From Catellatospora methionotrophica (GTDB taxonomy: Bacteria; Actinomycetota; Actinomycetes; Mycobacteriales; Micromonosporaceae): 64,000 nt of DNA. The notes under the pieces are model-generated. The model was not told the DNA's origin and searched no databases. It was given only the letters and a program-made list of their open reading frames with translations. Shown one piece after another: positions 5,201-22,761 of the stretch. Where the stretch lies: assembly GCF_011297335.1 (NCBI RefSeq), contig NZ_JAAOTJ010000003.1, forward strand, positions 124,001 to 188,000, written 5' to 3'. Numbering within the stretch: the stretch's first letter is position 1; each line of letters begins with the position of its first letter. The translations under genes and the position numbers were made by a program.

Positions 5201-5592
5201 AGCAGCGGCAGAGTGGTACGCGAGTCGTCGTAGCCGAAGCCGACCAGCGTCGAGATGTCGAACAGGCGCTCGTCGAGCTTGCCGCGGTTGAGCAGGCCGA
5301 CGGCGTCGGCGGGGATGACCCGCACGTCGTCGCCCGCGCTGTGGGTCAGGAACGCGATCCGTTCCCGGCCCTTGCCCGGCACGACGGTGACGGCGGTCTG
5401 GCCGTCGATCGTGCTGACGTGGACGGTGTCGCCGGTGAGCAGAGTGACCGTCGAGGGCTTCGACGCGACCGGGGGTGTGGTCGCCGGCTTCGGCAGCGGG
5501 GTCGGAGCCGCGGCGGCGGAGCCGCCGGGGACGACCGCCGAGACGCCGAGCACCAGCACCGCCAGCGCCGATAACTTGCGTACTGACCGCAT
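2263..5592 (-). CDS. Secreted subtilisin-like serine protease (S8 family)
   Basis: This encodes a 1109-aa precursor. An N-terminal signal peptide is visible (basic start, hydrophobic stretch, Ala-rich cleavage region near residue 28), followed by a propeptide-like region. The catalytic triad is Asp225 (VIDTGVDQTHPDL), His257 (GHGTHVAS) and Ser434 (SGTSMATPHVAG), with the oxyanion Asn in AAGNTG. About 600 C-terminal residues contain beta-rich segments rather than a second catalytic domain. The ATG at 5592 is preceded by AGGGAG at good spacing. It is monocistronic and probably an extracellular protease used in nutrition. Nothing links it to the defence genes. A near full-length open frame on the opposite strand is a GC-driven shadow. 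Confidence 0.95.
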   Translation of the reverse strand: MRSVRKLSALAVLVLGVSAVVPGGSAAAAPTPLPKPATTPPVASKPSTVTLLTGDTVHVSTIDGQTAVTVVPGKGRERIAFLTHSAGDDVRVIPADAVGLLNRGKLDERLFDISTLVGFGYDDSRTTLPLLIEHDGTTGGLTGARTIRELPGLSAVAQNRTDAVAFWNSLTAATGSERRLRTGYDKIWLDGLRKPTLDVSVPLTGAPQAWQAGFTGTGVKVAVIDTGVDQTHPDLAGRVAAAENFTAEPDALDRVGHGTHVASTIAGGGEASQGRFKGMAPGASLYSAKVCTIDGCPESAILAGMTWAAQQGVKVANMSLGGPDSSATDPIEAALADLTHRYGILFVVAAGNTGLGGESTVNSPGSVTEALTVGAVSKTGELAEFSSRGPRTGDAGIKPDITGPGVAIVAARSAASDLYANDDNPQYASLSGTSMATPHVAGAAAILAQQHPDWTPDRIKSTLMAAAQPSTAIGVYEQGAGFVDVARAIGQTATASPVSVAFERTTAAQSRTVTYTNSGTSALTLALTFDAKDADGAPAPAGLFSLSAPTVTVPAGGTATVTVTVQASAGLPDRYFGGEVTATGNGTQVQTPVAVDVVRRQLTLKLIGPDGGKPTAEQGWVTVLMDLDRQTQLVLDDPSATTHRVRAGRYLVQTYMLTGDPNAPDITSLVRPTLDLTKDQSLTVDTRKAKPLTVSVPNAKASLVFPDSGWTIRTQQPQIWGSNDPFGTLMNVPFDHIRTAQVGSGRTPGFVSYVHGIWGQVDADGGLHNSPYVYRAYFYEPGQMMTGLTRRLRAGDFATVRSQISADVPGVPVARNAVAHAPGNSPVYRDERNIQPTFTYDVPATITEYYHTDKKAVWQSVSAQTRYTYYQSDWTGYQPGRTYHVKWANAVAGPVYPQPNFGQQYATRYWGDQIGGPGPLHGDGTGHMGFRHVRGGSAQVTLYRDGVEIGSASEVPYTWQVPAQTGDYRLAATFTSDPAFTLSTVVQAEWTFTSGHVPDGELVKLPLTAIRYSPKLDIDNKAAAGRLFTIPVSLDRQVGAAPGRTKALTVEASFDDGKTWHKLPVLRFGEQGTALICHPAGTGFVSLRAAATDNRGNTVKQTVIRAYRY

Positions 5593-7852: not shown

Positions 7853-9961
7853 TCACGCGAGGGCACCAGGCTTGGCGGGCGCGCGTGACGTCTCCCCCAA
7901 CCAGAGGGTCAGCCGAGCGCGACTCATCGCCACATGTAGAGCGTGTCGAGCCAGAGTCGCCGACTCATCATCGGACTGGTACCCCTTGGCGGCGTCGGTG
8001 ATCGCGCTACTGGGGCCCGGCAGCAGGACGTGCGCGAACTCCAGGCCCTTCGCCTTGTGCCAGGTGCCCACCTTGACCCGGTCGGTGGGGTCACCGGTAT
8101 AGGCATCGAGTTCCACAACGGGGATGCCCTCCCTGCGCAGCAGGGCGGCGTATCGCCTGGCCTGCGCTCCCCGGTAGCACAACACGGCGACCTCGCCGTA
8201 GCCTCCCCCGGCCGCCAGCTCCCGGACAGCCGCGACGGCCTGGTTCTCGAGCTGGGATTCAGTCTCCTCCGACACCCGCACGACCCGCCCAGCGCCATGA
8301 GTCACCGCCAGATCCGCCGGCCGCCCCGTGACCATCGTGCCGTCGATGTCCTCCAGCCGCTGCTCCGCGATGACGTCGAGAGCCGCGTCGAGGATCGCCG
8401 GGGCGTTGCGGTAGTTGACGGTCAGAACCTCACTGCGTCCGCCGGTGATCGACAGGCCCGCGTCAGACAGCCGGTAACCGCCGGGATAGATCTTCTGGCG
8501 GCAGTCACCGATCAGAAGCAACCCGTTCGCCCCCGGTGGCGCGACAGCGGACACCAGCCGAAGCGCCGTCAAAGACAGGTCCTGCACCTCGTCGACGATG
8601 ACCGCCCCGTATCCGGGCTGCGGCGGCTCCCGCCGCGCCTCCGCGAGCGCCCGCATCAGCAGATCGGCCGCATCGGCGATCCCACGGTGCACGAGACGCT
8701 GCTGGTACCGCTCGTACAGGTCCCATACCAAGTCGCGTTGACCTTCTGTGAGCCGCAGTTGCCGGCCGGGCCTCGCGCTAGCCCGGTACTGGCCACGCTC
8801 GGCGATGCCCCGGCCCTTGATGACGACATCGATCTCCTGCCGCCAGTAGACCGGCCGCGGGTCCAACGCGGCCAGGGGCGAGCCGCGCATGGCCAGCCAG
8901 GCATGGCTGAACTCGTTCTCGGCAGCCGCCGCGTCGTAGGCTACCTCGATGCCGCGCTCGGCAAGGAACCTGGCGGCCCACCCGTGCACATGCACGCAGT
9001 CGATGCGATGGGCCAGGTCCGGGCGCATCTGATGGAGCAGTCTCGCCTGCACCCGCGGCACCATGCGCACGAGGCTGGTCAGCAGCACCGGACCGGTCGT
9101 GTTCTTGGCCGCTTCGACAGCGCGCCACAGTCCCACCACCGTCTTTCCCGTGCCCGCCGGGCCGCTGATCCGGGCAGGTCCCGTGTAGGTGCGTCGCACG
9201 ATCGCCAACTGGCTGGCGTGCAGGAACGTCATCCAGCGCTCCATGGGCCGGGCAGTCGCGGCCGCGACCTCGGCGTCGAGGATGTCCTGTGGTTCGAAGA
9301 GTCCTCCTGCCACCTGGGCGGCAGCCTGGACGGCGACCCGATCGGCCGGCAGGTTGCAGGGCTCGTACGCCGGATACACCTGTGCCAGGACCTCGTGCAC
9401 AGCTGTCACGTCGGCCGTCGACAGACGTGACGGCAGCTCTCCGGCCAGCGTCGGGCGCAGCTCCTTCACGCCCAGCAACATCACGCCCTGGTGATTGCGG
9501 TGCACCGAATGACCAGCGAAAGCGAGCACCGGATGAACGATGTCGGCGACGATCTGCAGCCGCCGTGCCAGCGCGTGCTGCGCGGGCCGGATCATCGCCT
9601 TCACCTTCGCGATCTCGGCCTGCCGGTTGTCCAGACCCGCGCACAGCACACCGGCATGGATCTGAGGCTGGCTGGTCCACTCCTTCGCGTCGACGATGAA
9701 TACGCCCGGCGGTCCGATCAGAATCATGTCCACGTTCGCCGAACGGGTTCCGGGCCAGGCACGGTCGATCATCAAGAACCATCGCTGCCGCCCGGCACCG
9801 TCCGGGCGGGTGAGTGCCATCAAGGCCGTCGCGATCTGTCGCTCGCCGAACGCGCCACGGGCGAACCGTGGCGCCAGTACGGCTTGCGCGTCCAGTTGGT
9901 CCCGCACCAGCTGCTGAGACCGGTCGGTGTCTGCGCGACGCCGACCGGTCACGACAGGCAC
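7853..9961 (-). CDS. NERD-domain nuclease/UvrD-like helicase
   Basis: This is a 702-aa protein. Residues 30-150 match a nuclease-related (NERD) domain: GAFGERQIATAL, then NVDMILIGPPGVFIVDAKEW with the acidic residue and K expected for a restriction-endonuclease-like fold. From residue 260 it is a superfamily 1 helicase, with Walker A GPAGTGKT (from G267), Walker B IVDEVQDL, GDCRQKIYPGGY, and C-terminal motifs GTWHKAKGLEFAHVLLPG and HVAMSRAR. NERD-helicase fusions are associated with DNA processing and anti-phage islands. The start is a GTG at 9961 without a strong ribosome binding site, sitting in a short palindrome (GACAGG-CA-CCTGTC, 9954-9967). It is probably monocistronic. Action on DNA in the cytoplasm is inferred from domains only. 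Confidence 0.85.
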   Translation of the reverse strand: MPVVTGRRRADTDRSQQLVRDQLDAQAVLAPRFARGAFGERQIATALMALTRPDGAGRQRWFLMIDRAWPGTRSANVDMILIGPPGVFIVDAKEWTSQPQIHAGVLCAGLDNRQAEIAKVKAMIRPAQHALARRLQIVADIVHPVLAFAGHSVHRNHQGVMLLGVKELRPTLAGELPSRLSTADVTAVHEVLAQVYPAYEPCNLPADRVAVQAAAQVAGGLFEPQDILDAEVAAATARPMERWMTFLHASQLAIVRRTYTGPARISGPAGTGKTVVGLWRAVEAAKNTTGPVLLTSLVRMVPRVQARLLHQMRPDLAHRIDCVHVHGWAARFLAERGIEVAYDAAAAENEFSHAWLAMRGSPLAALDPRPVYWRQEIDVVIKGRGIAERGQYRASARPGRQLRLTEGQRDLVWDLYERYQQRLVHRGIADAADLLMRALAEARREPPQPGYGAVIVDEVQDLSLTALRLVSAVAPPGANGLLLIGDCRQKIYPGGYRLSDAGLSITGGRSEVLTVNYRNAPAILDAALDVIAEQRLEDIDGTMVTGRPADLAVTHGAGRVVRVSEETESQLENQAVAAVRELAAGGGYGEVAVLCYRGAQARRYAALLRREGIPVVELDAYTGDPTDRVKVGTWHKAKGLEFAHVLLPGPSSAITDAAKGYQSDDESATLARHALHVAMSRARLTLWLGETSRAPAKPGALA

Positions 9962-10238: not shown

Positions 10239-12074
10239 TCAGTCCTCATAATCAGGGTCGTCGTCCTGCTCCTCGAACTCGCCCTCCTCAGGAACATCAC
10301 GCACGGCTGACTTGCCCATCGCCTCGCTGATGAGATTCAGCAGCTTCACCTGCCGATCCTCGAAGAAGGTCTCGAAGTCATCTGAGCGCAGCGCTGTCGG
10401 ATGAATCAGATGCGACTCGATGATCTGGTCCATCTTGTCGCCCCGGACACCGGCTGCCGATTCCACCCTCGCCAGGTAGCTGCTCGGAGCTCGCCCACCG
10501 ATCGCCCGGTTGGTGACGGAGGACAGCGCCGTCTTGTTGACGATCGACTCACGGTCGGCCCGGCTGATGTTGTTCCTGTCGCACCACGTCTTAGGAAAGA
10601 TGTGGTGGATATCGACCTGAAGGTCGAGAAAGTTAGCGATATTTATCGGTTGCGGCTGGATCCAATCCAGCCCACCTTCCCGCATCAACAGCGCGTAGAT
10701 GCCCTTGTAGGCCGCGCTGTTGCGCGTCCGTAGACTCCAGAGCCGGGACTCGTGGAAACTCGCGTCCGACACGGTGCCCGGCTCGGCCCTGTCGCCGCGA
10801 ACCCAGTCAACGACCTGCTCCAGGTCCCTGGCGAAGCGCGTCTCGGTACTACCCCCGTAGAGCTCGCCCAGTACCCCGGACCAGAACCAGCGTCGCAGTT
10901 TGATGTCGGCGCTGTGGGTGTCCACGGCAGAACCCAGCACTGCCCTGATCGCCGCCAGCGGAATGAGCTGACTCCGGTAAGGAACATCCTTGTCAGTAAA
11001 TATGTGCTGACGGGTAAGGAACGCCGAGGCCCAGATCAGACCCTCCTCAACCGCAGGCGCGTGGGTGAGGTAGTCGTCCAGCGTGAGCTTGAGGATGTCG
11101 CGGCGTTTACACGACACCCCTGGCGACTGCGCAGAGTCTTTCCCAGCCGCCAGATGGGCCTCTCGTCGCGCGTACGAGGTCAGTAGCGAGATCGTCTGCA
11201 GGAAGTCGGTGTTCTGCACAGAGCCGAGAACACGCTTCGCGGCCAGCCGCTCGTACCGCTGCCGCCAGTCGTCGTTGAGGCGAAAGTCCTGGTGCTTTCG
11301 ATCTCCAGCAAACGTGGCGGTCAGCAGCTCGAATACGTTGAGCACCACTCCGCCCGTGTTCACCTTCTCAAAAACTATGCAGACCGCTTCCTTCGGCGTC
11401 GACTTCTTCAGAACGATGACAGGCACCGTGTAGCTGATGATGTTCTGCAGTACTTTCGCGTAGAAGGCATTCCAACGATGCACTCTGTCCGCGTCCCCTG
11501 CGACATACCGGCCGCCCCACTCGAAGACCTTCGCCGCGTCGAGTGCGATCCACAGCGGGAAAACGCCTTCCACACATTGCTGATCGATCGTGGAATAGTC
11601 CGCGATGGTCACCCGGCCGAAGTCTTTCCGCAATTTCAGGTCGGCAGGCACGGAGAGGATCGCCTCCTCACGATCGCCGTCCTCATCCAGCGCTCGCTCC
11701 ATGTCGATGAAGTACCAACGCTGCAGTTTCTTACCGTTCGGGTCGCAGGTCTCGACAGGTTGCTGGGCCTTGAGCGACTGGAACAGGGAGGTCAGCCGCT
11801 GTTGGCCGTCGAGCAGCAGCTGCTCCGGCTCGGCCAGTGCGGCTCCATCGGCCACGCCAGCGAGAGGGCGGGGCGCCAGACGGATGTCATCGCCACCCGT
11901 CTCCAACATCATCACGACCCCGACCGGGTAGCCAAGGCTGATGGTCGCAAGCAGGCTGGCGATCCGCGGGTCGTCCCACTTCCATTCTCGCTGGAAGTCA
12001 GGCAGTTGGACCTTGCCCTGACCGACATCCTGTAGCAGCGTTCCGAGGTTAATGTCTGGGCTGTCGAACGGCAT
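10239..12074 (-). CDS. DUF262 / HNH (GmrSD-type) restriction protein
   Basis: The start at ATG 12074, with a G-rich ribosome binding site, gives 611 aa. A GTG at 12116 would add 14 unconserved residues. The N-terminal DUF262 (GmrS-like) domain has LPDFQREWKW and LLDGQQRLTSL, the ParB-like NTPase motifs. The C-terminus carries an HNH-type motif (DIHHIFPKTWC followed by NKTALSSVTNRAIGG), as in GmrD/DUF1524. Family members such as GmrSD are nucleotide-dependent type IV enzymes that cut modified phage DNA. An acidic tail (EEGEFEEQDDDPDYED) ends the protein. It is divergent from the RAMA-CBS gene, with 229 bases between starts, so the two may act together. Confidence 0.88.
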   Translation of the reverse strand: MPFDSPDINLGTLLQDVGQGKVQLPDFQREWKWDDPRIASLLATISLGYPVGVVMMLETGGDDIRLAPRPLAGVADGAALAEPEQLLLDGQQRLTSLFQSLKAQQPVETCDPNGKKLQRWYFIDMERALDEDGDREEAILSVPADLKLRKDFGRVTIADYSTIDQQCVEGVFPLWIALDAAKVFEWGGRYVAGDADRVHRWNAFYAKVLQNIISYTVPVIVLKKSTPKEAVCIVFEKVNTGGVVLNVFELLTATFAGDRKHQDFRLNDDWRQRYERLAAKRVLGSVQNTDFLQTISLLTSYARREAHLAAGKDSAQSPGVSCKRRDILKLTLDDYLTHAPAVEEGLIWASAFLTRQHIFTDKDVPYRSQLIPLAAIRAVLGSAVDTHSADIKLRRWFWSGVLGELYGGSTETRFARDLEQVVDWVRGDRAEPGTVSDASFHESRLWSLRTRNSAAYKGIYALLMREGGLDWIQPQPINIANFLDLQVDIHHIFPKTWCDRNNISRADRESIVNKTALSSVTNRAIGGRAPSSYLARVESAAGVRGDKMDQIIESHLIHPTALRSDDFETFFEDRQVKLLNLISEAMGKSAVRDVPEEGEFEEQDDDPDYED

Positions 12075-12303
12075 ATCAAACCCCCACCACGGCGACCAAG
12101 ACGACAACCCTTCCACGAGATCCAGACTGCCGCCATCGTCCGGTCATCTTTCGAGTGACACCCGGTCGAGGAAATGTATTCCTGCGCCGATTGCGGTATC
12201 GCTCTGGATAGGACAGGATCGTCCGCGGTGTTGTGCCCGCCCGGTTTACTGTGCAGAGCGGCTGTCGCCAGCCGACCGCATCCCGACAGCAGGAGAGTCG
12301 CGC

Positions 12304-13707
12304 ATGTCGCTCGAAGACCGGCCCCGGACCCGCCGCGAGCTGCTCATCGACGGGCGCCGCGTGCGGCTCGCCGACCTGATCGAAGCAAGCTTGCTCAAGC
12401 CCGGCCAGGAGCTTTTCTACCAGCAGCGCGTGGGCATGGAGCCATTCCGGTCGGTGCTCACCGAACGCGGGCGCCTGCGACTAGATGACGGGCGGGAATT
12501 CAGCTCGCCTTCTGCGGCAGCCACGGCACTCGCCGAGGTCACCGCGGTCGCCGGGTGGTCCGCATGGCGCGTCGGGCGTGACGGCCCCTACCTCTATCGG
12601 CTTCGTCAAGAGCTCTTGAAGGAGGTAGCCGACGAGGTATCGCGGGCCGCCAGCACCGCAGAGCCCGAGGCCGACGCCGCGACCCAGCGGTTTGCCCTTT
12701 TGAACGACGCCCGCAGCGCCGCCGATTCCGGCGAGCCACGCACCCTGACCGTTCAGGAGATGCTGAAACTCTGGGGCGCAGAGGACCGGGATCGCTCCAC
12801 GAGCATGCAGATCGAGTCAGACCTGGCCAACCACGGGCTGACCACCGTGCCCGACTTCCGCGCGGTAAGCCTGGACCATGTCGTACGCATCGTCGCCCCT
12901 GCCGTCGAGGCTCCCACCATTCCCGCCGCAACCTCCCTCGAGGAATCGAGTTCGCCGTCCGCTCGGCTGGCTAGCGAGGAGGTGAGTGTCGACATCGGCC
13001 TTACGCTCGGCAACCTGTTGTCCGGCACGCGGCGACTCGCCGCCGTCTCCCCTTCGGCGACGTTCGAGGAAGCCGTCACCACCATGCAACTCAATGACTA
13101 CTCTCAGCTTGCGGTGCTCGCTACTCCCCGCAAACTGCACGGGGCGGTCTCGTGGAAATCGATCGCTGAGGCGAGGCACCTCAAGCCCGATGCGAAGTTC
13201 AGCGACGCCGTCGACCGCAATGTTCAAGTCTTCGGCTACGGTACCCGCCTGCTCGACGTCCTCGACGTACTACAGCGTGACGGCTTCATATTCGTCAGCG
13301 ACTTCGACAACACGATCAACGGCATCATCACCACCGCCGACGTGGTACAGAAGTACGACGAGACCGCGACGCCGTTCTTCCTCATCGGCGAGGTCGATCA
13401 GGAACTCCGCCTCCTGATCCAGAACACGTTCGACGAGGAGACCGCACGGCAGGCGTGCACGGCGGCGAAGATCGGCTTCAAGACGTTTCATGAGATGACC
13501 ATGGGCCAGTACCAGGCTGTCCTCGATAATCCATCGTGCTGGGCGCAACTCGGCTGGCCGCTGGATCGGAAGACCTTCATTCAGCGGTTGGACCAGATAC
13601 GCCGGGTCCGCAACACTGTCATGCACTTCAATCCCGATCCCGTCAGGGCGGAGGACGTCGCCATACTGCGCAACTTCCTGAACCTGATCAGGCGATACAA
13701 CGGCTGA
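12304..13707 (+). CDS. RAMA - CBS pair - HEPN-like fusion protein
   Basis: ATG 12304 is preceded by AGGAG at about 9 bases, and the product is 467 aa. Residues 12-105 resemble RAMA, a small beta domain found with adenine methylases and proposed to read modified DNA (LIDGRRVRLADLIEASLLKPG, GREFSSPSAAATAL). About residues 220-360 form two CBS repeats (LAAVSPSATFEEAVTTMQ and FGYGTRLLDVLDVLQRDGF), which usually bind adenine nucleotides. The C-terminal 110 residues are helical and contain R436-N437-T-V-M-H441, the RNxxxH signature of HEPN ribonucleases, in the context DQIRRVRNTVMHFNPD. I infer a DNA-modification or nucleotide sensor coupled to an RNase effector. The function is untested, and the HEPN call rests on motif and helix context. 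Confidence 0.75.
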   Translation: MSLEDRPRTRRELLIDGRRVRLADLIEASLLKPGQELFYQQRVGMEPFRSVLTERGRLRLDDGREFSSPSAAATALAEVTAVAGWSAWRVGRDGPYLYRLRQELLKEVADEVSRAASTAEPEADAATQRFALLNDARSAADSGEPRTLTVQEMLKLWGAEDRDRSTSMQIESDLANHGLTTVPDFRAVSLDHVVRIVAPAVEAPTIPAATSLEESSSPSARLASEEVSVDIGLTLGNLLSGTRRLAAVSPSATFEEAVTTMQLNDYSQLAVLATPRKLHGAVSWKSIAEARHLKPDAKFSDAVDRNVQVFGYGTRLLDVLDVLQRDGFIFVSDFDNTINGIITTADVVQKYDETATPFFLIGEVDQELRLLIQNTFDEETARQACTAAKIGFKTFHEMTMGQYQAVLDNPSCWAQLGWPLDRKTFIQRLDQIRRVRNTVMHFNPDPVRAEDVAILRNFLNLIRRYNG

Positions 13708-13825: not shown

Positions 13826-14131
13826 TCACGCGTAGTACTTGTGCGCCGTCTCCGGCGCCTCACCGGATTGCAGATACTTTGAAATGATCGCCCCGGCGAC
13901 TCGCACCACCTTGAGCCGGTCAGATGACGAATCGTGGCCGGCGACCACAAACCGGGAACCGTATATGACTAGGTCACCTTGGACCACTCCGTCCTCCGCG
14001 CATGGCCTCACTGCCTGGGTCGCCGGATCGAACAGCACGAAGCCAGCGGTCACGCTGCCGCCATCAGCCTCCCAGCGGTAAAGGACGCCGCTCGGCAGCT
14101 CCGCGACTTTGAACACGCCCAGTACGAACAC
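13826..14131 (-). CDS. Presumed immunity protein, cassette copy 1
   Basis: This is a 101-aa protein starting at GTG 14131, with AAGGAG seven bases upstream that overlaps the end of the toxin gene. It has no signal peptide or TM segment. The sequence alternates hydrophobic and charged residues as in a small beta-rich domain (GVLYRWEADGG, AEDGVVQGDLVIYGS). The copy at 30011-30316 differs at roughly one residue in five but keeps length and position behind the same toxin. Position 15 bases after a polymorphic toxin is the main reason to call it an immunity protein. I do not recognise the family. Confidence 0.6.
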   Translation of the reverse strand: MFVLGVFKVAELPSGVLYRWEADGGSVTAGFVLFDPATQAVRPCAEDGVVQGDLVIYGSRFVVAGHDSSSDRLKVVRVAGAIISKYLQSGEAPETAHKYYA

Positions 14132-14146
14132 GCGCTGACTCCTTCA

Positions 14147-15409
14147 TTACCCCTGGAACCCTAGACCGTCGGCTGCGGCAGCACCTTCGTTCCAGGGGTG
14201 GCCTGCCTCGATCGTGGCATTGTGGGCCTTCATGTAACTGGGATCGCCGGTCCTGGCCATGTGCTGCGACTCGTACAACTCGTGCCGAAGCAGGTTTAGG
14301 TCGGCGGGGTGCGGGGTGCCGTTGGCGAGCCGCTGCCACGCTTCGGCGATTCGCGGGTTGGGGTCGAAGCGCGCCATCTCCCCCGGCGGGAAATAGTCGA
14401 GCAGGTGCTCCTCGTGAAAGAGGTGGTTCTTGATCTGAATGACGTCGTCGGGCGTGAAGCCGTGTTCGGCGGCCGTTGCCGCCACGTCCGCCACGTCGTC
14501 GGCTGATCGGATCTCGTCGTACATCTCTGATGCCCAGCGGGCGTCCCAGTCGCCGGCGTCTCTGGGCCGCCGGACGATGCCGCCGCTCTGCAAGATGTCG
14601 AAGCCCGCGTCGCCGTCCAGGTGGGCGGATGGTGCACCGAACCGGCGCGCCATGAGGCGAGCCAGGGTCTCGACGATCTCGTCCAGCTTTCGCAGGGCAG
14701 GCGACAGGTTGCGCAAGCTGGAGGTGAGCGCCTTGATCAGCCGCATGATCCGTGCGCCCCACTTCGCGACCAGGGCTGCCACCTGTGCTTCGACGTAGGG
14801 CGTGGCGAGACCGAAGGTGCCGAGCGTCTCCGCCGTCCACAGCGGGATCCGGGCGACGAGGATCGACACCAGTTCCCCGATGAGATCTCGCACCAGCGTA
14901 CGGACGAGCGTCACCAGCGATCCGGTCATCTCGACGATGACGCCCATAGCCTCTGAGGCTTTCGCCAGCCCCGCTGTCAGTTCGAACGTATCGGCGGCCT
15001 GGGCCCGGTAGGCCGCAGCGGCAGCACCGCGCCAGTCCGGAATCTCGTATCTGACGCCTCGCAGGTAATGATCGGCGATGCTGTCTTGCTCCTCGGCGAC
15101 GTTTCGCCACGTCTGCGCGTTGGCTGCCACGTGATCAGGGTCTCCCACGAGCCAGTCGAGGGCGTCCGACAGTGGCTGGACATGCTCAACGACCCATCCG
15201 AACCCGGCGGTGACGAGAGCACCGACAGGATCGAGCAGCCACACCGCGCCTTCCGCGGCAGTACCGAAGCCACCCAGCGTGCTGTCGACCCACGACCCGC
15301 TCTTGACGCCGTCGACCAGCATGTCGACCGTTTCGACGATGCCGACACCGGAATACCAGGCTGTCGTGTCCACGCGCGGCGCTACGAGCGGGTTCTTGGC
15401 TTCTGGCAC
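14147..15409 (-). CDS. WXG/ESX-type polymorphic toxin, cassette copy 1
   Basis: This is a 420-aa protein starting at GTG 15409, three bases after the WXG-like frame ends. Residues 1-200 are helical, with a Trp-rich ESX-like layout (DWLVGDPDHV, WRNVAEEQDSIADHYLRG, DWRGAAAAAYRAQAADTFE), typical of type VII secretion substrates. Residues 290-420 are a separate C-terminal domain rich in His and acidic residues (HLFHEEHLLDYFPPGEMARF, LLRHELYESQHM, MKAHNATIEAGHPWN) that I take as the toxic domain. Its activity is not recognisable. The paralogue at 30332-31594 is nearly identical over this domain, including a 311-bp stretch without a single difference. Frame and length are intact. Confidence 0.7.
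   Translation of the reverse strand: MPEAKNPLVAPRVDTTAWYSGVGIVETVDMLVDGVKSGSWVDSTLGGFGTAAEGAVWLLDPVGALVTAGFGWVVEHVQPLSDALDWLVGDPDHVAANAQTWRNVAEEQDSIADHYLRGVRYEIPDWRGAAAAAYRAQAADTFELTAGLAKASEAMGVIVEMTGSLVTLVRTLVRDLIGELVSILVARIPLWTAETLGTFGLATPYVEAQVAALVAKWGARIMRLIKALTSSLRNLSPALRKLDEIVETLARLMARRFGAPSAHLDGDAGFDILQSGGIVRRPRDAGDWDARWASEMYDEIRSADDVADVAATAAEHGFTPDDVIQIKNHLFHEEHLLDYFPPGEMARFDPNPRIAEAWQRLANGTPHPADLNLLRHELYESQHMARTGDPSYMKAHNATIEAGHPWNEGAAAADGLGFQG
14307..14617. repeat. 311-bp identical tract, toxin copy 1
   Basis: These 311 bases are identical to 30492-30802, although flanking homologous DNA differs every 5-15 bases. The tract covers the core of the toxin domain (from the IVRRPRDAGDW region to NGTPHP). 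Identity includes synonymous positions, which selection on the protein would not preserve, so recent gene conversion or recombination between the cassettes is the likely cause. Confidence 0.8.
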
Positions 15410-15412
15410 CGC

Positions 15413-15769
15413 TCAGATCTGCCTGTCGGCAGGTCGGTAACGGGCGAGCAGGTCAAGATGACCACTGACCGAGTCATCGGCCATCTGGTAGGTCGTGCGG
15501 ACCGCGCGCAGCGCCTCACCCATAGTCTCCACATGCACTGCCGACATCTGCATCACAGCGATGATCCGGGCTTGGAACGGCGCAAGATTTGCGGGTATAA
15601 ACGCGCACGCTTGGCCGTAGGCATCGATGTCCAGGCTCGCCCTACGCGCGGCGCTGTGCACCGTGTCGGCACGGTCGGCAAGGCCGCTGACAGTACGCGC
15701 ATGACGGCTGATCTACTCGCTCGGAGCGACGACCTGCTCGAGGGGCACCCCATCGTCAGCGATCAGCAT
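15413..15769 (-). pseudogene. WXG-like ESX protein gene, amber-interrupted (copy 1)
   Basis: Aligned with the intact 118-aa copy at 31598-31954, this frame has exactly the same length (357 nt) and starts at ATG 15769. Codon 19, Gln in the other copy, is TAG here (15713-15715), between VVAPSE and ISRHAR. Downstream the frame stays open and similar (ADRADTVHSAARRASLDIDAYGQACAFIPANL). A shortened product from GTG 15661 (82 aa) could still be made. The intact version is a small helical secretion partner placed before the toxin. Loss of the first third would probably disable it. Confidence 0.7.
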
Positions 15770-16081: not shown

Positions 16082-16920
16082 ATACCTTCGCCTCCCGAGT
16101 CACCTAGCCTTCGCAGCCTAGGAGACCGAGCCGAACCGGACAAGGCTTCTGTCGATGCTTCGATCAGGGCGTTAGGTCTAGCGAGCTGCCGCACTCGACT
16201 GGCTCGACTAAACAGCGTCGTCGCTTCCCGTCGATGCGTGTTACCGCGCAGGAGTAGCAGTCACCTACCTTCGGCGCGGTCCTGCCCTGGCGCGTCGACC
16301 CACCTCGCACCCTGACGACGTCATTGAGCCGATGACCATCGACGGCGTCTATGCCGCGCTCGGGGAACTCGGCGACGCTCCACAAACTCTGGAAAGAGAC
16401 CTATCCGAACATAAGCTCGACCGCTACCGAAGCCGCTCGACTCAGGGTCACCTATTTTCGCTGATCTTGCCGAGCGTCGGATGGATTTAATCGGCATCCG
16501 AGGGGTAACCCAAACGAAATCCCCACCGGATTCGACGCTGTCGACGTCGATTCAGTTGATCTAGCTGTTATCGGGGCGGGGTTCCAGGTCTCGACACTTT
16601 CACGGTGGAGCAGCTTCCGGGGCTCCTCGCCGCGGGCCACCGCGAGCCTGCCGAGCTGAGGAAGAACTCATCGAACTGCGGTGGCGACGCGACGCGTGAG
16701 GGTAACCAACGGACCTTGCCCGACCCGAGCCACCGTACAACGGGCCAGGAGTCTGTCGACGTCGGGCGCGTTATCGAAACGTTATGGAATTGACCAGCAG
16801 CAATCTAACCAAGACTTCGGTGGCGGCGCTAATTTGTTCAATGCCTCAACTATTACCCCCACAGGTCTTCGGCGAGCCGCGGCGGGCTCTGAAGTCCCGT
16901 CCAGGCATTGGAGACTCTTC
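16082..16920. other. 839-nt intergenic region with no firm gene
   Basis: This separates the toxin cassette from the ThuA gene. A 52-codon open frame from ATG 16332 to TAA 16490 on the plus strand (MTIDGVYAALGELGDAPQTL...) has gene-like codons but no clear ribosome binding site, so I leave it uncalled. About 135 bases before the ThuA start, at 16771-16786, TTATCGAAACGTTATG contains the AACGTT core seen in LacI-type operators. It could be a carbohydrate-responsive site, but this is weak. Unlike the cassettes, this upstream DNA shows no obvious match to the region upstream of copy 2. Confidence 0.4.
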
Positions 16921-19900
16921 GTGTCCGCACAACGTCGCAGCCGCACCCATCCGAATATCAGAGCGCGATCTCTGCTCGGTTCGGTGCTCGCGCTCGCCAT
17001 GACCGTGACCGCGCTTGCCGTCGGGCAGTCGCCCACGCGGGCCGCGCCGGCAACCACCCGTCAAGCCAACGCGGCGCTCGCTCCGTTCTCGGTGCTGGTC
17101 TTCTCGAAGACCGCCGGGTTCCGGCATGATTCCATTCCCGCCGGCATCGCAGCGATCCAGCAACTCGGTGTCGACAACGGGTTCACGGTCACCGCGACGG
17201 AGGACGCTGGCGCGTTCACCGACGCCAACCTCGCGCAGTACGCGGCGGTGATCTGGCTGTCGACCACCGGTGATGTGCTCGACGCCGCCCAGCAGGAAGC
17301 CTTCGAGCGCTACATCCGTGCCGGCGGCGGTTATGCCGGCGTGCATTCCGCATCGGACACCGAATATGCCTGGCCATGGTACGGCAGCCTGGTCGGCGCA
17401 TACTTCTCTGCGCACCCGAACAACCAGCAGGCGACCATCAAGGTCGAGGACCCAGCGCACCCGTCCACGGCTGCTCTGCCGGCGCAGTGGTCACGGATCG
17501 ACGAGTGGTACAACTACCAGGCGAACCCGCGCAGCAAGGTGCATGTGCTGGCCAGTCTGGACGAGCGGTCCTACTCGCCGGGCACCGGTGCGATGGGTGC
17601 CGATCACCCGATCGCGTGGTGCCAGGATTATGACGGCGGCCGGTCCTGGTACACCGGGATCGGTCACACCATCGCTTCGTACACCGAGCCTTCATTCCTG
17701 GCTCACCTGCTCGGCGGCATCCAGACCGCGGCCGGTGCGCTCGACTCCGACTGCAGCGCGTCGCTGACCAGCGGGTACGAGAAGGTGACGCTGGACAGCA
17801 ACACGCAGAATCCGATGGAGCTGGACGTCGCGCCGGACGGCCGGGTCTTCTACATCGAGCGTGACGGCCGGGTGCAGATCATCAAGCCCGCCACCGGCAC
17901 CACGGTGACCGCGGTCGACCTGGATGTCTTCACCGGCAACGAGGACGGCCTGATCGGCATCCGGCTGGACCCGAACTTCGCCACCACCAACTGGGTCTAC
18001 CTGTACTGGGCGCCGAACGACGGTATGACGCGTAACCGGATCTCCCGGTTCACGGCCAGCGGCGACAGCATCGACCCGGCCAGCGAGAAGGTCGTGCTGG
18101 AGGTGACGACGCAGCGCACCACCTGCTGCCACGCCGGCGGTTCGATGGTGTTCGACCGCGCCGGCAACCTGTACCTGGCCACCGGCGACAACACCAACCC
18201 GTTCGAGTCCGACTCGTTCACCCCGATCGACGAGCGGACCGGGCGCCAGAACTTTGACTCCCAGCGCACCTCCGGTAACACCAACGACCTGCGCGGCAAG
18301 GTGCTGCGCATCCACCCGGAGGCCGACGGCACGTACACCATCCCGAGCGGGAACCTCTTCCCGCAGGGTACGGCGATGACCCGGCCTGAGATCTTCGCGA
18401 TGGGCTTCCGCAACCCGTTCCGGATCGGCATCGACGCGAAGACGAACACGCTGTACGTGGCCGACTACGGCCCGGACGCGAGCACGACGAACCCGAACCG
18501 CGGCCCGGAAGGAACAGTCGAATGGAACATCGTCCAGCCCGGCAACTACGGCTGGCCGTACTGCCACGGGGCTAACTACGCCTACAACGACTACACCTTC
18601 CCGAGCGGACCGTCCGGCGCGAAGTTCGACTGCGCCGCCCCGGTCAACAACTCGCCCAACAACACGGGTCTGACCAACCTTCCGCCCGCGGTCAGCGCCA
18701 CCGTCGACTACGACTACAGCGGCAACGCACTGTTCCCGGAGATCGGTGGCGGCGGCGCGCCGATGGCCGGGCCCGTGTACCGCTACGACCCCGACCTCGT
18801 CTCCGAGCGCAAGTGGCCGGCGTACCACGACGGCAAGGCGATGTTCGGCGAGTGGAACCAGAACAAGATGTACGCGTTCCAGGTCGCCGCCGACGGCAGG
18901 TCGCTGGTCGACATCAACAACATGCTCAGCGGCATGACCTTCCTGCGGCCGATGGACATCGAGTTCGGTCCGGACGGCGCGCTCTACCTGATCGAATGGG
19001 GCACCGGATTCGGCGGCAACAACGGCGACTCCGGCATCTACCGCATCGACTACATAGCGGGCGAGCGGGCCCCGATCGCGGTGGCGACCGGCACGCCGGA
19101 CTCCGGACCTGCGCCACTTTCGGTGCAGTTCTCCAGCGCCGGGTCGCGTGACCCGAACGGCGGGGCGCTGAGCTACGCATGGACGTTCGGTGACGGTGGC
19201 ACCTCCACCGTGGCCAACCCGTCGCACACCTACCCGGCTGCCGGCAACTACACGGCGCAGCTGACCGTCACCAACACCGCCAACCGCACGGCCGTCGCGA
19301 ACGTGACGGTCACGGTCGGCAACACCGCACCCACGGTCACCATCTCGTTCCCGCCGGACGGCGGCTTCTTCGAGTGGGGTGACCAGGTCAAGTACACCGT
19401 CGCGGTGACCGACCCGGAGGACGGGACGATCGACTGCTCGCGGGTGAGGCTGCAGTACTACCTCGGTCACGACCAGCACGCACACCCCCTGCAGTCGTAC
19501 ACCGGGTGCACCGGCACCGTGCAGACGTCGCTGGCCTCCGGCCACGGCGCTGACGCCAACGTGTTTGCCGTGTTCGAGGCCACCTACACCGATGATGGTG
19601 GAGCCGGCGGCTCCCACGCGCTGACCGGCAGGGCGATCGAACAGCTGCAGCCCAAGCGCAAGCAGGCCGAGTACTTCACCGCCACCGGACGGGCTCCCGA
19701 CGGCGTCGGCGGCGGTGACCCGGGCGTGCAACTGGAGACGACGACCGACACCGCCGGCGGTTTCCAGAACATCGGCTTCATCGAGGACGGCGACTTCTGG
19801 TCGTACGCCCCGGTGAACCTGACCGGTATCGACGTGCTGCGGTTCCGGGTGGCGTCGGCCACCGCCGGTGGACGCATCGAGGTAAGGACCGGCACGGCGG

Positions 19901-22761
19901 ACGGGCCGGTGCTGGCTACCGCGACAGTGCCGGGCACCGGCGGCTGGCAGACCTTCACCGATGTCACGGCGACGCTGAGCAGCCCGAGCACGGTGACCGG
20001 GCCGCTGTTCCTGGTGGCGAAGAACCCGGCAGGCGACACCGGTACGGGTTCGTTGTTCAACGTCAACTGGGTCGACTTCCTGGGACGCGGCGTGACCGAC
20101 AACGCGCCGCCGGTGGTCACCGCGACGGCGACGCCCACCACCGGCACCGCGCCGGTGCTGGTCACCTTCACCGGTTCGGCGACCGACGCCGAAGACGACA
20201 GCCCGCTGACCTACCTGTGGGAGTTCGGAGACGGCGCCACAGCCGCCACCGCCAACGCCACGCACACCTACGCCAACCCCGGCACTTTCACAGCGACGCT
20301 GACCGTGTCCGATGCGCGCGGCGCGAAGTCGTACGCCAACGTGGTCGTCAGGGTCCAAGCGCCGAACAACGCCTGCCTCGGCGCCCGTTCGGACAACTTC
20401 GACGGCACCGCACTGGACAAGGGCCGCTGGTCGACCGTGGTCCGGGAGAACCAGCTCTACTCAGTGGCCGGTGGCACATTGCGGCTGCCCACCGCGGTCG
20501 GTGACCTCTACGGCACCCGCAACGACGCGACCAACCTGATCCTGCAGCCGGCACCGGATGGCGCCTGGCAGGCGACCACCAAGGTGTCTGTCACCGTGGC
20601 GGCCGACTACCAGCAGGCCGGCCTGATCGTGTACGGCGACGACGACAACTACGCCAAGCTGGACCTGGTGTACGGAGGCTCCAGGAAGTTCGAGTTCATC
20701 CGGGAGACCGCAGGGTCGCCGCGCAACGGCTCCGCCGACGCGGTCAGGGCCCCGGCAGAGCTCGGCGACACGGCCTACCTGCGGTTGATCAGTGACGGCG
20801 TGAACCTGACGGCGGCCTGGTCAGCTGACGGTGTGACATTCGCGCCGGTCGGGCAGTCGGCCGCGCTGGCCGGCATCGTCAACCCGAAGGTGGGCATGTT
20901 CGCCCTCAACGGCGGCACCACCGCACCGGTCGTCGACGCGGCGTTCGACTGGTTCCAGATCACCCCGGACGCTCCGGCCGGGCCGATCGACCCGTCCGAC
21001 GAGTTCGACGGGTCAGCCCTGGACCGGTGCAAGTGGAACGCGGTAGTCCGCGAGGAAGCCGGCAAGTACCGGGTCACCGGCGGCAAGCTGGAGATAGATG
21101 TGCCTAACGGGGACATCTACACAGGTGCCAACACCGGGCCCACCAACTTCATCCTGCAGAACGCGCCATCCGGTGACTGGACGCTGCAGACGAAGGTGGA
21201 CGGTAGCCAGCTCAACGAGCAGTACCAGCAGGCAGGCCTGCTGGTCTACCTCGACGACGACAACTACCTGAAGCTGGACTACATAGTCGACAACACGGCC
21301 GGCTCACCCGTCAGCCGGCGGATCGAGTTCCGCAGCGAGATCGCCAGTGTCGTGCAGAACCCGCAACCCGGAATCACCAACCTCACCGGCGCGGTATGGC
21401 ACCTGCGACTGGCCCGGGTGGGCGGCGTCTACACGGCCTCCTACTCCGCCGACGGCACCACCTGGACGGCGCTGGAGCCGTTGACCAACACGGTCGTAGG
21501 TGACACTCCCAAGGTCGGGCTGTTCACGCTCGGCGCCAACCAGACGGCGTCGAAGCCGGCAAGCTTCGACTACTTCCGGATGACCACGCCAGGCGCCGGC
21601 GACACCACAGCCCCGGTGACCACGGCTACCGTGACCGGTGCGGCTACCGCCGGCTGGTACACCGAGTCGCCGACGGTCAGCCTGACCGCCGCCGACGAGG
21701 CCGCAGGCAGCGGCGTCACGCGCACCGAGTACCAGCTCGACGACGCCACGACGTGGACCGCCTACACCGAGCCGGTGCTGATCAGCGGGACAGGAACGCA
21801 CCAGCTGCGCTACCGCTCCACCGACACCGCAGGCAACGTCGAGCAGGCCAAGACCGTCGAGGTGAAGATCGACGCCACGGCGCCGGTCACCACAGCGACG
21901 TTCGCACCGGCCAACGACGACGGCTGGCACGCCGGGCAGGTGCCGGTGCTGCTCGCCGCCACCGACGCCGGTGCCGGCGTGGCCAAGCTGGAGTGGTCAC
22001 TGGACGGCGGGCCGTGGACGCCCTACACCGAGCCTGTCAACATCGGCGGCGACGGGCAGCACGAGCTGCTCTACCGGGCCACCGACGGGGCGGGCAACGT
22101 CGAGACGCTGAAGTCCGCCATCCTGAAGGTCGACGGCAACCAGCCGACCGTCATCGTGGCAGGGTTGGCCGACGGCCAGCTCTACGGCGACAGCCAGGAC
22201 GTCCGGGTCACCTTCCAGGCCGTCGATCCGACCTCCGGCATCGCGTCGGTCGTCGGGACGCTCAACGGCGCGGCGTACACGACCGGCACCCTGCAGGCCA
22301 TGTACGAGCTGCGGCTCGGCCTGCACGAGTTGACGGTCACCGCCACCGACAAGGCCGGCAACAAGACGGTCTCCACGGTGCGGTTCTACGTGACGACCTC
22401 GTTCCGGGACATGCAGAACCTGCTGGACCGGTTCAAGGCGACCAGCCGGCTGTCGGCCAACGCGCACAAGAAGCTGACGGCCAAGCTGACAGCGGCTCGC
22501 CAGTCCGAGGCGAACGGCAAAGACGCCAAAGCCATCAGCCAGCTCAAGGAGTTCCGCGCGCTCGCGTTGAACACCTCGCTCGTGCCCGAGGCCGAAGTCC
22601 GGGCGGTACTCGTCCGCGACACCGATGCCATGATCATCAGGCTGGGCGGCACACCGCCGACCAACGCCGGGGCCAAGGCCAACGGCGGCACGTCACTGGC
22701 CGGGGTCGGACGGCTGAACGGTGACGTCGTCCGCATCGGCAAGAACGGCCGCCTGAGGTAG
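16921..22761 (+). CDS. Secreted ThuA / sugar dehydrogenase / CBM multidomain enzyme
   Basis: GTG 16921 has GGAG seven bases upstream and starts a signal peptide directly (basic RRSRTHPNIRARS, hydrophobic core, Ala-rich end). An open frame reaching back to 16681 lacks a start signal. The 1946-aa product contains, in approximate residue order: ThuA domain (55-277); glucose/sorbosone dehydrogenase-like PQQ-type beta-propeller (284-714); PKD domain (719-800, with YAWTFGDGG); Ig-like region; CBM6-like module (914-1057, QAEYFTATG start); second PKD (1062-1145); two related laminin-G/DUF1349-like modules (1158-1352 and 1359-1557, sharing YQQAGL and DDDNY); two OmpL47/Ig-like repeats; and a helical C-terminal segment. 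It probably acts on extracellular sugars or polysaccharides. It is monocistronic and ends at a strong hairpin. Confidence 0.9.
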   Translation: MSAQRRSRTHPNIRARSLLGSVLALAMTVTALAVGQSPTRAAPATTRQANAALAPFSVLVFSKTAGFRHDSIPAGIAAIQQLGVDNGFTVTATEDAGAFTDANLAQYAAVIWLSTTGDVLDAAQQEAFERYIRAGGGYAGVHSASDTEYAWPWYGSLVGAYFSAHPNNQQATIKVEDPAHPSTAALPAQWSRIDEWYNYQANPRSKVHVLASLDERSYSPGTGAMGADHPIAWCQDYDGGRSWYTGIGHTIASYTEPSFLAHLLGGIQTAAGALDSDCSASLTSGYEKVTLDSNTQNPMELDVAPDGRVFYIERDGRVQIIKPATGTTVTAVDLDVFTGNEDGLIGIRLDPNFATTNWVYLYWAPNDGMTRNRISRFTASGDSIDPASEKVVLEVTTQRTTCCHAGGSMVFDRAGNLYLATGDNTNPFESDSFTPIDERTGRQNFDSQRTSGNTNDLRGKVLRIHPEADGTYTIPSGNLFPQGTAMTRPEIFAMGFRNPFRIGIDAKTNTLYVADYGPDASTTNPNRGPEGTVEWNIVQPGNYGWPYCHGANYAYNDYTFPSGPSGAKFDCAAPVNNSPNNTGLTNLPPAVSATVDYDYSGNALFPEIGGGGAPMAGPVYRYDPDLVSERKWPAYHDGKAMFGEWNQNKMYAFQVAADGRSLVDINNMLSGMTFLRPMDIEFGPDGALYLIEWGTGFGGNNGDSGIYRIDYIAGERAPIAVATGTPDSGPAPLSVQFSSAGSRDPNGGALSYAWTFGDGGTSTVANPSHTYPAAGNYTAQLTVTNTANRTAVANVTVTVGNTAPTVTISFPPDGGFFEWGDQVKYTVAVTDPEDGTIDCSRVRLQYYLGHDQHAHPLQSYTGCTGTVQTSLASGHGADANVFAVFEATYTDDGGAGGSHALTGRAIEQLQPKRKQAEYFTATGRAPDGVGGGDPGVQLETTTDTAGGFQNIGFIEDGDFWSYAPVNLTGIDVLRFRVASATAGGRIEVRTGTADGPVLATATVPGTGGWQTFTDVTATLSSPSTVTGPLFLVAKNPAGDTGTGSLFNVNWVDFLGRGVTDNAPPVVTATATPTTGTAPVLVTFTGSATDAEDDSPLTYLWEFGDGATAATANATHTYANPGTFTATLTVSDARGAKSYANVVVRVQAPNNACLGARSDNFDGTALDKGRWSTVVRENQLYSVAGGTLRLPTAVGDLYGTRNDATNLILQPAPDGAWQATTKVSVTVAADYQQAGLIVYGDDDNYAKLDLVYGGSRKFEFIRETAGSPRNGSADAVRAPAELGDTAYLRLISDGVNLTAAWSADGVTFAPVGQSAALAGIVNPKVGMFALNGGTTAPVVDAAFDWFQITPDAPAGPIDPSDEFDGSALDRCKWNAVVREEAGKYRVTGGKLEIDVPNGDIYTGANTGPTNFILQNAPSGDWTLQTKVDGSQLNEQYQQAGLLVYLDDDNYLKLDYIVDNTAGSPVSRRIEFRSEIASVVQNPQPGITNLTGAVWHLRLARVGGVYTASYSADGTTWTALEPLTNTVVGDTPKVGLFTLGANQTASKPASFDYFRMTTPGAGDTTAPVTTATVTGAATAGWYTESPTVSLTAADEAAGSGVTRTEYQLDDATTWTAYTEPVLISGTGTHQLRYRSTDTAGNVEQAKTVEVKIDATAPVTTATFAPANDDGWHAGQVPVLLAATDAGAGVAKLEWSLDGGPWTPYTEPVNIGGDGQHELLYRATDGAGNVETLKSAILKVDGNQPTVIVAGLADGQLYGDSQDVRVTFQAVDPTSGIASVVGTLNGAAYTTGTLQAMYELRLGLHELTVTATDKAGNKTVSTVRFYVTTSFRDMQNLLDRFKATSRLSANAHKKLTAKLTAARQSEANGKDAKAISQLKEFRALALNTSLVPEAEVRAVLVRDTDAMIIRLGGTPPTNAGAKANGGTSLAGVGRLNGDVVRIGKNGRLR

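What the first reader, a model, noticed from the sequence alone, without database searches (positions are those of the whole stretch)
12304..13707. RAMA reader, CBS sensor and HEPN-like motif in one protein
The sequence shows a RAMA-like N-terminus, a CBS pair and RNTVMH at residues 436-441 in a helical C-terminus. RAMA is known from adenine-methylase contexts, CBS pairs bind adenine nucleotides and HEPN domains are RNases in many defence systems. I know of no described system with this order. Together with the divergent GmrSD-type gene it could be a detector of modified DNA or nucleotide shifts that triggers RNA cleavage.
Basis: partly seen in the sequence, partly recalled or inferred. Interest (0 to 1): 0.78.

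Follow-up and report, generated by a model that had tools for sequence, protein, structure and literature searches.

The report
Antiphage RNase fused to DNA-reader domain
This gene encodes a relative of a recently described single-protein bacterial defence RNase (DS-11) that carries an extra DNA-reading domain at its front end, an arrangement kept in one group of actinobacteria that hints at what the otherwise unexplained RNase might be watching.

Summary
In detail: the 467-aa protein has a RAMA domain (residues 10-108), a CBS pair (about 242-354) and a helical C-terminus with RNTVMH at 436-441. It is not an unknown system: NCBIfam places residues 152-462 in DS-11, an E. coli CBS-HEPN antiphage protein that needs its CBS tyrosine Y157 and its HEPN catalytic residues (window Y266, R436/H441). 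R, N and H of the motif are invariant in 71 of 71 full-length proteins aligned. New, as far as I could search, is the front end. Of those 71, 36 carry RAMA, 13 a different domain shared with PADLOC's PDC-S02, and 22, including the E. coli homologue, neither; none carries both. The RAMA proteins form one supported clade. In 17 of them a ParA-like ATPase gene lies just upstream (not in the window). A GmrSD gene like the window's neighbour was found near none of the other 35 RAMA genes, but sits upstream of a reader-less DS-11 clade in 9 of 9 loci. Best reading: an RNase effector of the DS-11 kind, gated by an adenine nucleotide and by DNA contact through RAMA. RNase activity and reading of modified bases are untested; a fold search did not confirm HEPN.

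The parts
12291..12295 (+). Shine-Dalgarno-like AGGAG, 8 bases before the ATG at 12304
   Evidence: sequence printed
12304..13707 (+). RAMA-DS-11 gene, 467 aa plus stop
12331..12627 (+). RAMA domain, residues 10-108
   Evidence: Pfam PF18755 76.8 bits, cut-off 35.2
12739..12903 (+). conserved N-terminal subdomain of the DS-11 core, about residues 146-200 (helices then strands), present with or without a reader in front; R162 invariant
   Evidence: NF053863 match begins at residue 152; R162 in 71 of 71; model
13027..13365 (+). CBS pair, about residues 242-354
   Evidence: Pfam PF00571, NF041630 237-354; fold matches to CBS pairs bound to AMP, c-di-AMP, ATP or SAM
13099..13101 (+). Tyr266, counterpart of DS-11 Y157 (Y 42, F 28, W 1 of 71)
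   Evidence: Y157A result in PMC13092281
13366..13704 (+). HEPN-type helical domain, about residues 355-467
13609..13626 (+). RNTVMH, residues 436-441, predicted RNase active site
   Evidence: R, N and H invariant in 71 of 71
10239..12074 (-). divergent GmrSD_N-containing gene (611 aa), neighbour rather than shown partner
   Evidence: Pfam PF03235 4e-26

Best explanation
It is a DS-11-type defence effector with a DNA-contact module added. Inferred working: the protein is a dimer; the CBS pair holds an adenine nucleotide whose level or kind changes on infection; RAMA, perhaps with the short subdomain behind it, holds the protein on double-stranded DNA, perhaps preferring modified phage DNA; when both conditions are met the C-terminal HEPN pair cuts RNA through R436/N437/H441 and stops the infected cell. 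Shown elsewhere: antiphage activity of E. coli DS-11 and its loss on mutating Y157 or HEPN catalytic residues. Shown here: domain content, conservation, clade structure, neighbours. Inferred: RNA cleavage, two-input gating, what RAMA binds. About 0.85 for a DS-11-type RNase effector; about 0.5 for RAMA acting as a DNA-dependent input.
For: NF053863 DS11_antiphage, 267.2 bits (cut-off 260), residues 152-462. The E. coli homologue scores 404.9 bits and has Tyr at exactly 157 and RNDVMH at 330-335, the residue number that PMC13092281 reports for the DS-11 mutant. R/N/H invariant in 71 of 71, position 266 always aromatic. RAMA-DS-11 is one side of a branch with SH-aLRT support 100, so the fusion is kept rather than a one-off. 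A second front domain occurs in another 13 and matches PDC-S02 models in 10 of 10 scanned, and more weakly a PADLOC type II restriction enzyme model; it was never found together with RAMA. Two RAMA members are further fused to an SF2 helicase (ResIII and Helicase_C), and 17 of 36 follow a ParA-like ATPase gene.
Against: No experiment on any RAMA-bearing member. The window score is only 7 bits over the DS-11 cut-off; of 7 RAMA members scanned (window, L001, L089) exceed it and 4 (L002, L003, L004, L130) lie 1.6-5.1 bits under. HEPN fold not confirmed by fold search. RAMA preference for 6mA was not reproduced in the MPND structural study, which also says that RAMA of CcrM contacts DNA backbones without base-specific contacts (PMC9963953, passages). 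No conserved methyltransferase was seen beside the RAMA loci: a crude motif scan within 6 kb found candidates in 4 of 35 RAMA, 4 of 13 second-domain and 1 of 13 reader-less loci examined, several of which look like chance motifs.
Confidence: 0.6

Rival explanations
1. RAMA is only a non-specific DNA tether. It keeps the RNase on the nucleoid or at phage replication sites; the CBS ligand alone is the trigger, as presumed for reader-less DS-11.
For: 22 of 71 relatives have no reader and E. coli DS-11 is active although its homologue here has none; RAMA of MPND binds dsDNA regardless of 6mA and sequence (PMC9963953, passages); no methylase is conserved beside RAMA loci in a crude scan.
Against: The alternative front domain is shared with a candidate defence family, PDC-S02, and with a type II restriction enzyme model; RAMA also occurs in nuclease fusions proposed as modification-dependent (PMC11037411, passages). 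Both point to recognition more than tethering.
Confidence: 0.25
2. A GmrSD plus RAMA-DS-11 two-gene system: GmrSD recognises or cuts modified phage DNA and releases the RNase, the two genes sharing the intergenic region.
For: Relatives of this GmrSD sit directly upstream of reader-less DS-11-like genes in 9 of 9 loci of one clade; HEPN combined with DUF262-HNH is on record (PMC3710099, Table 1, passage; that DUF262 is the older name of GmrSD_N is recalled).
Against: 0 of the other 35 RAMA loci have it in the stretch fetched; the window GmrSD groups outside the operon clade; 8 of 15 genomes of the family with this GmrSD carry it with no DS-11-like gene within the about 6 kb fetched each side.
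Confidence: 0.1
3. A toxin-antitoxin type growth regulator: the RNase is held off by a partner (ParA-like ATPase in the sister subclade) and acts in stress, defence being secondary.
For: A ParA/Soj-HEPN dyad was proposed as a toxin-antitoxin pair (PMC3710099, passage) and 17 of 17 members of the sister subclade have a ParA-like gene upstream.
Against: No ParA-like gene in the window (64 kb) or in the fetched loci of the other 16 rows of its subclade; its founding relative is an antiphage protein.
Confidence: 0.1

Closest known systems
DS-11 (DefensePredictor; NCBIfam NF053863), E. coli CBS-HEPN antiphage protein
   Same: N-terminal subdomain, CBS pair with the aromatic at Y157/Y266, RN..MHF motif, order of domains
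   Different: E. coli homologue is 365 aa with no reader; the window protein adds about 145 residues with RAMA; 27% identity over the core
CBS-HEPN fusions noted in 2013 (PMC3710099)
   Same: CBS coupled to HEPN, proposed to regulate RNA stability in response to nucleotides (passage)
   Different: no RAMA named: 0 occurrences in the main text
RAMA fusion endonucleases (RAMA-Mrr-NTPase, GIY-YIG-RAMA) mentioned in PMC11037411
   Same: RAMA as the possible recognition end of a defence protein (passage)
   Different: their effector is a DNase; here it is a predicted RNase behind a CBS pair
CoCoNuT type IV-related systems (PMC11090510)
   Same: modified-base reader domains and HEPN RNases in one class of systems (passages)
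   Different: multi-gene McrBC-type GTPase systems; YTH-like readers; no RAMA or CBS in the passages seen
GmrSD type IV restriction
   Same: neighbour gene has GmrSD_N
   Different: not conserved with the RAMA-DS-11 gene

Membership tests
DS-11 (NF053863) | curated score cut-off of 260 bits over the 305-position model | tested here: met
   267.2 bits, model 2-305; borderline, 4 of 7 RAMA members scanned lie just under
DS-11 (NF053863) | CBS tyrosine that contacts the predicted adenine ligand (Y157) | tested here: met
   Y266 aligns in D-Y-S-Q; 42 Y, 28 F, 1 W of 71
DS-11 (NF053863) | HEPN catalytic residues | tested here: met
   R436, N437, H441 invariant in 71 of 71
DS-11 (NF053863) | defence by a single protein | not testable with these tools
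   no experiment; neighbour GmrSD is not conserved with it
[quoted passage not shown]
   RNTVMH at the end of helix 422-439; definition from PMC3710099 (passages)
HEPN superfamily | HEPN fold by structure comparison | tested here: inconclusive
   0 PDB matches at E <= 0.001; MntA-HepT toxin-antitoxin chains at ranks 7 and 22 with E 1.6 and 2.7
RAMA (PF18755) | Pfam gathering score | tested here: met
   76.8 bits against 35.2
RAMA (PF18755) | binding of DNA, with or without preference for 6mA | not testable with these tools
   PDB matches of the RAMA profile include MPND 7ydt (rank 1, E 0.084) and CcrM 6pbd (rank 5, E 1), neither significant
GmrSD system | GmrSD_N domain in the adjacent gene and conserved linkage | tested here: not met
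   domain met, linkage not met: 0 of 35 other RAMA loci in the stretch fetched

The most novel reading that the evidence does not exclude
DS-11-type CBS-HEPN proteins are a shared RNase chassis onto which restriction-type recognition parts are plugged: RAMA by fusion, the PDC-S02 front domain by fusion, GmrSD by operon. If so, this is modification-dependent (type IV-like) immunity whose cut is made in RNA, with a second key, an adenine nucleotide, at the CBS pair.
Probability: 0.35. Interest if true: 0.8.

Novelty: new variant of a known kind. Interest (0 to 1): 0.55.

Why it matters
DS-11's trigger is unknown; its authors say the adenine derivative remains to be discovered. A sizeable actinobacterial set in which the same effector core carries one of two alternative front domains, or has a GmrSD gene in front, says where to look: DNA, possibly modified DNA. 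It would connect two classes usually kept apart, modification-dependent restriction and abortive RNases, and it offers natural constructs (with RAMA, with the PDC-S02 domain, with neither) for direct comparison.

Tried and rejected
Rejected: GmrSD as dedicated partner of this gene. Not found: a methylase conserved beside RAMA loci (a crude motif scan that left out the 9 loci L006-L008 and L041-L046). Not concluded: that the about 300 aa in front of RAMA in L002 and L067-L069 are really fused; they are similar to each other, but L068 lacks a stretch, L070 and L072 do not share it, and a Met (Val in L072) lies before RAMA; Pfam gives nothing for L002, and my impression of an RNase H-like region is recalled.

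Led nowhere: phage records, no match of the full protein at E 1e-5; window DNA against E. coli genomes, no match; PDB sequence search with the C-terminal domain, nothing relevant; Foldseek with the C-terminal domain, no significant match; PDB and Pfam for the second front domain, nothing relevant. I therefore call it the PDC-S02 front domain; 'PUA-like', the label used in my scripts and notes, is my recall of the sequence pattern and was not tested. A flanking-gene search for an empty site gave no clean one. A paper search with 'RAMA' as a word start returned mostly Raman spectroscopy.

Full report
What is there. The reading frame 12304-13707 (+) gives 467 residues. An in-frame start upstream at 12052 exists (551 aa), but it overlaps the start of the divergent gene, and the ATG at 12304 has AGGAG 8 bases upstream (sequence) and fits the starts of relatives. 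Pfam finds RAMA at residues 10-108 (76.8 bits, cut-off 35.2) and CBS (two stretches); nothing for the C-terminus. NCBIfam finds NF053863, 'DS11_antiphage, CBS domain-containing anti-phage protein', residues 152-462, 267.2 bits against a cut-off of 260.

Identity with DS-11. In the DefensePredictor paper (PMC13092281; I saw search listings and passages) DS-11 is a one-protein antiphage system with CBS and HEPN domains; alanine at Y157 in the CBS domain, or mutation of HEPN catalytic residues, abolished defence, and the adenine ligand is said to be undiscovered. A tblastn of the window protein found an E. coli homologue (28.8% identity over residues 137-463) whose translation is 365 aa with Tyr at exactly 157 in HDYSQL and RNDVMH at 330-335. 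It scores 404.9 bits with NF053863. Its DNA matches 127 of 5426 complete E. coli genomes (126 over at least 80% of the query), annotated 'CBS domain-containing protein' in the 15 rows listed. That this is the tested DS-11 protein is an inference from the residue number and the score. In the window the counterparts are Y266, R436 and H441. 'RAMA' occurs 0 times in that paper's main text; supplements were not read.

Family survey. A profile of the core (A2, 10 sequences) was searched in 354 genomes of the window's family (66 with a match at E <= 1e-15), 397 of the order (26 at E <= 1e-25) and 396 of the phylum (3 at E <= 1e-25, two of them of the window's family); the sets overlap and each includes the window's own genome. 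Six relatives came from viral contigs, 5 from genome contigs and 4 from plasmid records. The family is Micromonosporaceae, inferred because contig lengths of L001-L003 (Micromonospora) equal those of G220, G218 and G271. Of the 68 places, four weak or partial ones (G027, G282, G355 and the second place in G119, all under 100 bits) were not fetched. From 89 loci, 91 matching frames were found; I kept 70 that cover most of the core with more than 190 bits and dropped 21 frames: broken, split or truncated genes and shorter or more distant CBS-HEPN-like proteins. With the window this is 71. Four dropped loci (L065, L093, L106, L138) also show RAMA in a frame at the same place.

Conservation. R436, N437 and H441 are invariant in 71 of 71; position 440 is M in 57, A in 12, T in 2; position 266 is Y in 42, F in 28, W in 1; Q268, G340, T343, D346 and P357 are invariant. 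Of the 21 dropped frames, 18 reach the motif and all 18 keep R and H. This is what an active HEPN site and a kept ligand pocket would give.

Front domains. With profiles made from family members, 36 of 71 carry RAMA (window included), 13 carry a second domain, 22 carry neither, none carries both. The RAMA rows are one side of a branch with SH-aLRT 100; the three labels together need 3 changes where shuffled labels need 29.8 on average (quick method, several long branches, so single long rows are unsure). RAMA rows come from Micromonosporaceae (28 plus the window) and from 7 further loci: Actinophytocola (L004) and six genomes of the order under two other family codes; in one of these, L127, RAMA lies partly in another frame. 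The second domain (A4, 10 of the 13) is hit by PADLOC's PDC-S02 models in 10 of 10 members, residues 1-164 of a 346-position model in the first, and more weakly by a type II restriction enzyme model in 10 of 10; Pfam and PDB sequence searches gave nothing relevant. The 10 full-length relatives from E. coli, Rhizobium, Methylobacterium, six viral contigs and one unnamed bacterium (L005-L008, L041-L046) have no front domain. PMC11037411 (passages) notes RAMA fusions to nucleases as possible modification readers; PMC9963953 (passages) reports that RAMA of MPND binds dsDNA but found no effect of 6mA.

Neighbours. In 17 of 17 rows of one RAMA subclade (SH-aLRT 93) a ParA-like ATPase gene lies 0.3-1.0 kb upstream on the same strand, except that the frame called for L129 runs up to it and that the gene is split over two frames in L087. 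In the four loci inspected (L004, L081, L090, L130) a 158-248 aa gene lies between; the two of these scanned have only sub-threshold Rho_N (2.4e-5) or SAP (0.0069) matches. The window's subclade lacks the ATPase (0 of 17 rows). L088 and L089 are 899 aa and begin with an SF2 helicase (ResIII, Helicase_C). Of 15 genomes of the family with this GmrSD, 6 are such operons, one is the window, and 8 have no DS-11-like gene in the stretches fetched. So GmrSD-DS-11 pairing is real in another clade; in the window it may be coincidence. Among DS-11-like neighbours in other loci are large helicases similar to Druantia DruE (L001, 308 bits), which fits defence surroundings. Window G+C is 0.61-0.70 from about 5 to 17 kb, against 0.71-0.76 to the left, but it stays at 0.67-0.70 to about 23 kb on the right, so the right edge is not sharp. 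Of the other 10 genomes of the genus, only G003 has a match, and that is weak and short. A gained island is plausible, not shown.

Structure. AlphaFold2 of the whole protein (12 sequences, pLDDT 81.1, pTM 0.58) puts RNTVMH at the end of helix 422-439. Foldseek of that model finds CBS pairs, some bound to AMP, c-di-AMP, ATP or SAM, best E 7.4e-7. The C-terminal 116 residues alone (pLDDT 90.0) have 0 PDB matches at E <= 0.001; two MntA-HepT chains appear at E 1.6 and 2.7. Pfam HEPN-type families appear only weakly among 12 members (HEPN_RiboL-PSP 0.016, DUF4145 0.024, HEPN_Swt1 0.037), beside unrelated families of similar E-value. So HEPN rests on the motif, its place, its invariance and the published DS-11 result, not on a fold match here.

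Known and new. CBS-HEPN fusions were noted in 2013 (PMC3710099, passages) and DS-11 was tested in the 2026 paper. Papers holding both 'RAMA domain' and 'CBS domain': 0; 'RAMA domain', 'phage' and 'HEPN': 1, where RAMA is fused to DUF3780; 'CBS domain', 'anti-phage' and 'HEPN': 2, the two named above; at least 3 of five related terms: 5 papers, of which I read passages of two. A survey of the ParB-CTPase fold reports CBS fusions in archaea but does not mention HEPN or GmrSD (PMC12704722, passages). In this open-access library I found no description of the RAMA-DS-11 architecture; most subscription papers are not held.

Verdict. A confirmed, correctly described protein; a new variant of a known antiphage effector. 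The mechanism I favour is an RNase gated by an adenine nucleotide and by DNA contact through RAMA; reading of modified bases is possible but unproved.

Noticed in passing
L057, L059-L063, L133-L135: GmrSD relatives directly upstream, same strand, of reader-less DS-11-like genes with RN..AHF in 9 of 9 loci; looks like a two-gene system that I did not find described.
   Followed up: partly
L004, L078, L079, L081-L087, L090, L125-L130: RAMA-DS-11 genes preceded by a ParA-like ATPase gene, 17 of 17; in the four loci inspected a small gene lies between.
   Followed up: partly
L088:7998-10694, L089:6315-9011: 899-aa fusions of an SF2 helicase with RAMA and the DS-11 core; the helicase of L089 resembles those of type I restriction endonucleases in part.
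   Followed up: no
L094-L097, L099-L105, L136: Shorter or more distant CBS-HEPN-like proteins (257-389 aa) with RNKVFH or RNAVFH, most without the N-terminal subdomain; left out of the counts.
   Followed up: no
window 7853-9961 (-): NERD plus UvrD-type helicase gene beside GmrSD; relatives also lie near several DS-11-like loci.
   Followed up: no
window 13826-15661 (-): A 420-aa protein flanked by two small genes that, by eye, resembles a secreted actinobacterial polymorphic toxin with an immunity gene (recalled impression, no family search); one relative in L069.
   Followed up: no
window 2263-5592 and 16681-22761: The genes flanking this stretch are about 11 kb apart here but about 80-184 kb apart in the three relatives of the genus (G002, G006, G010) where their closest counterparts lie on one contig.
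   Followed up: partly
L056 (G125): A DS-11 gene with the second front domain is interrupted by a stop codon.
   Followed up: no
L156, reverse-strand frame 2802-3948: A 382-aa protein with a weak RAMA match (29 bits, E 2e-8) lies about 1.9 kb upstream of a GmrSD relative that has no DS-11-like neighbour.
   Followed up: no
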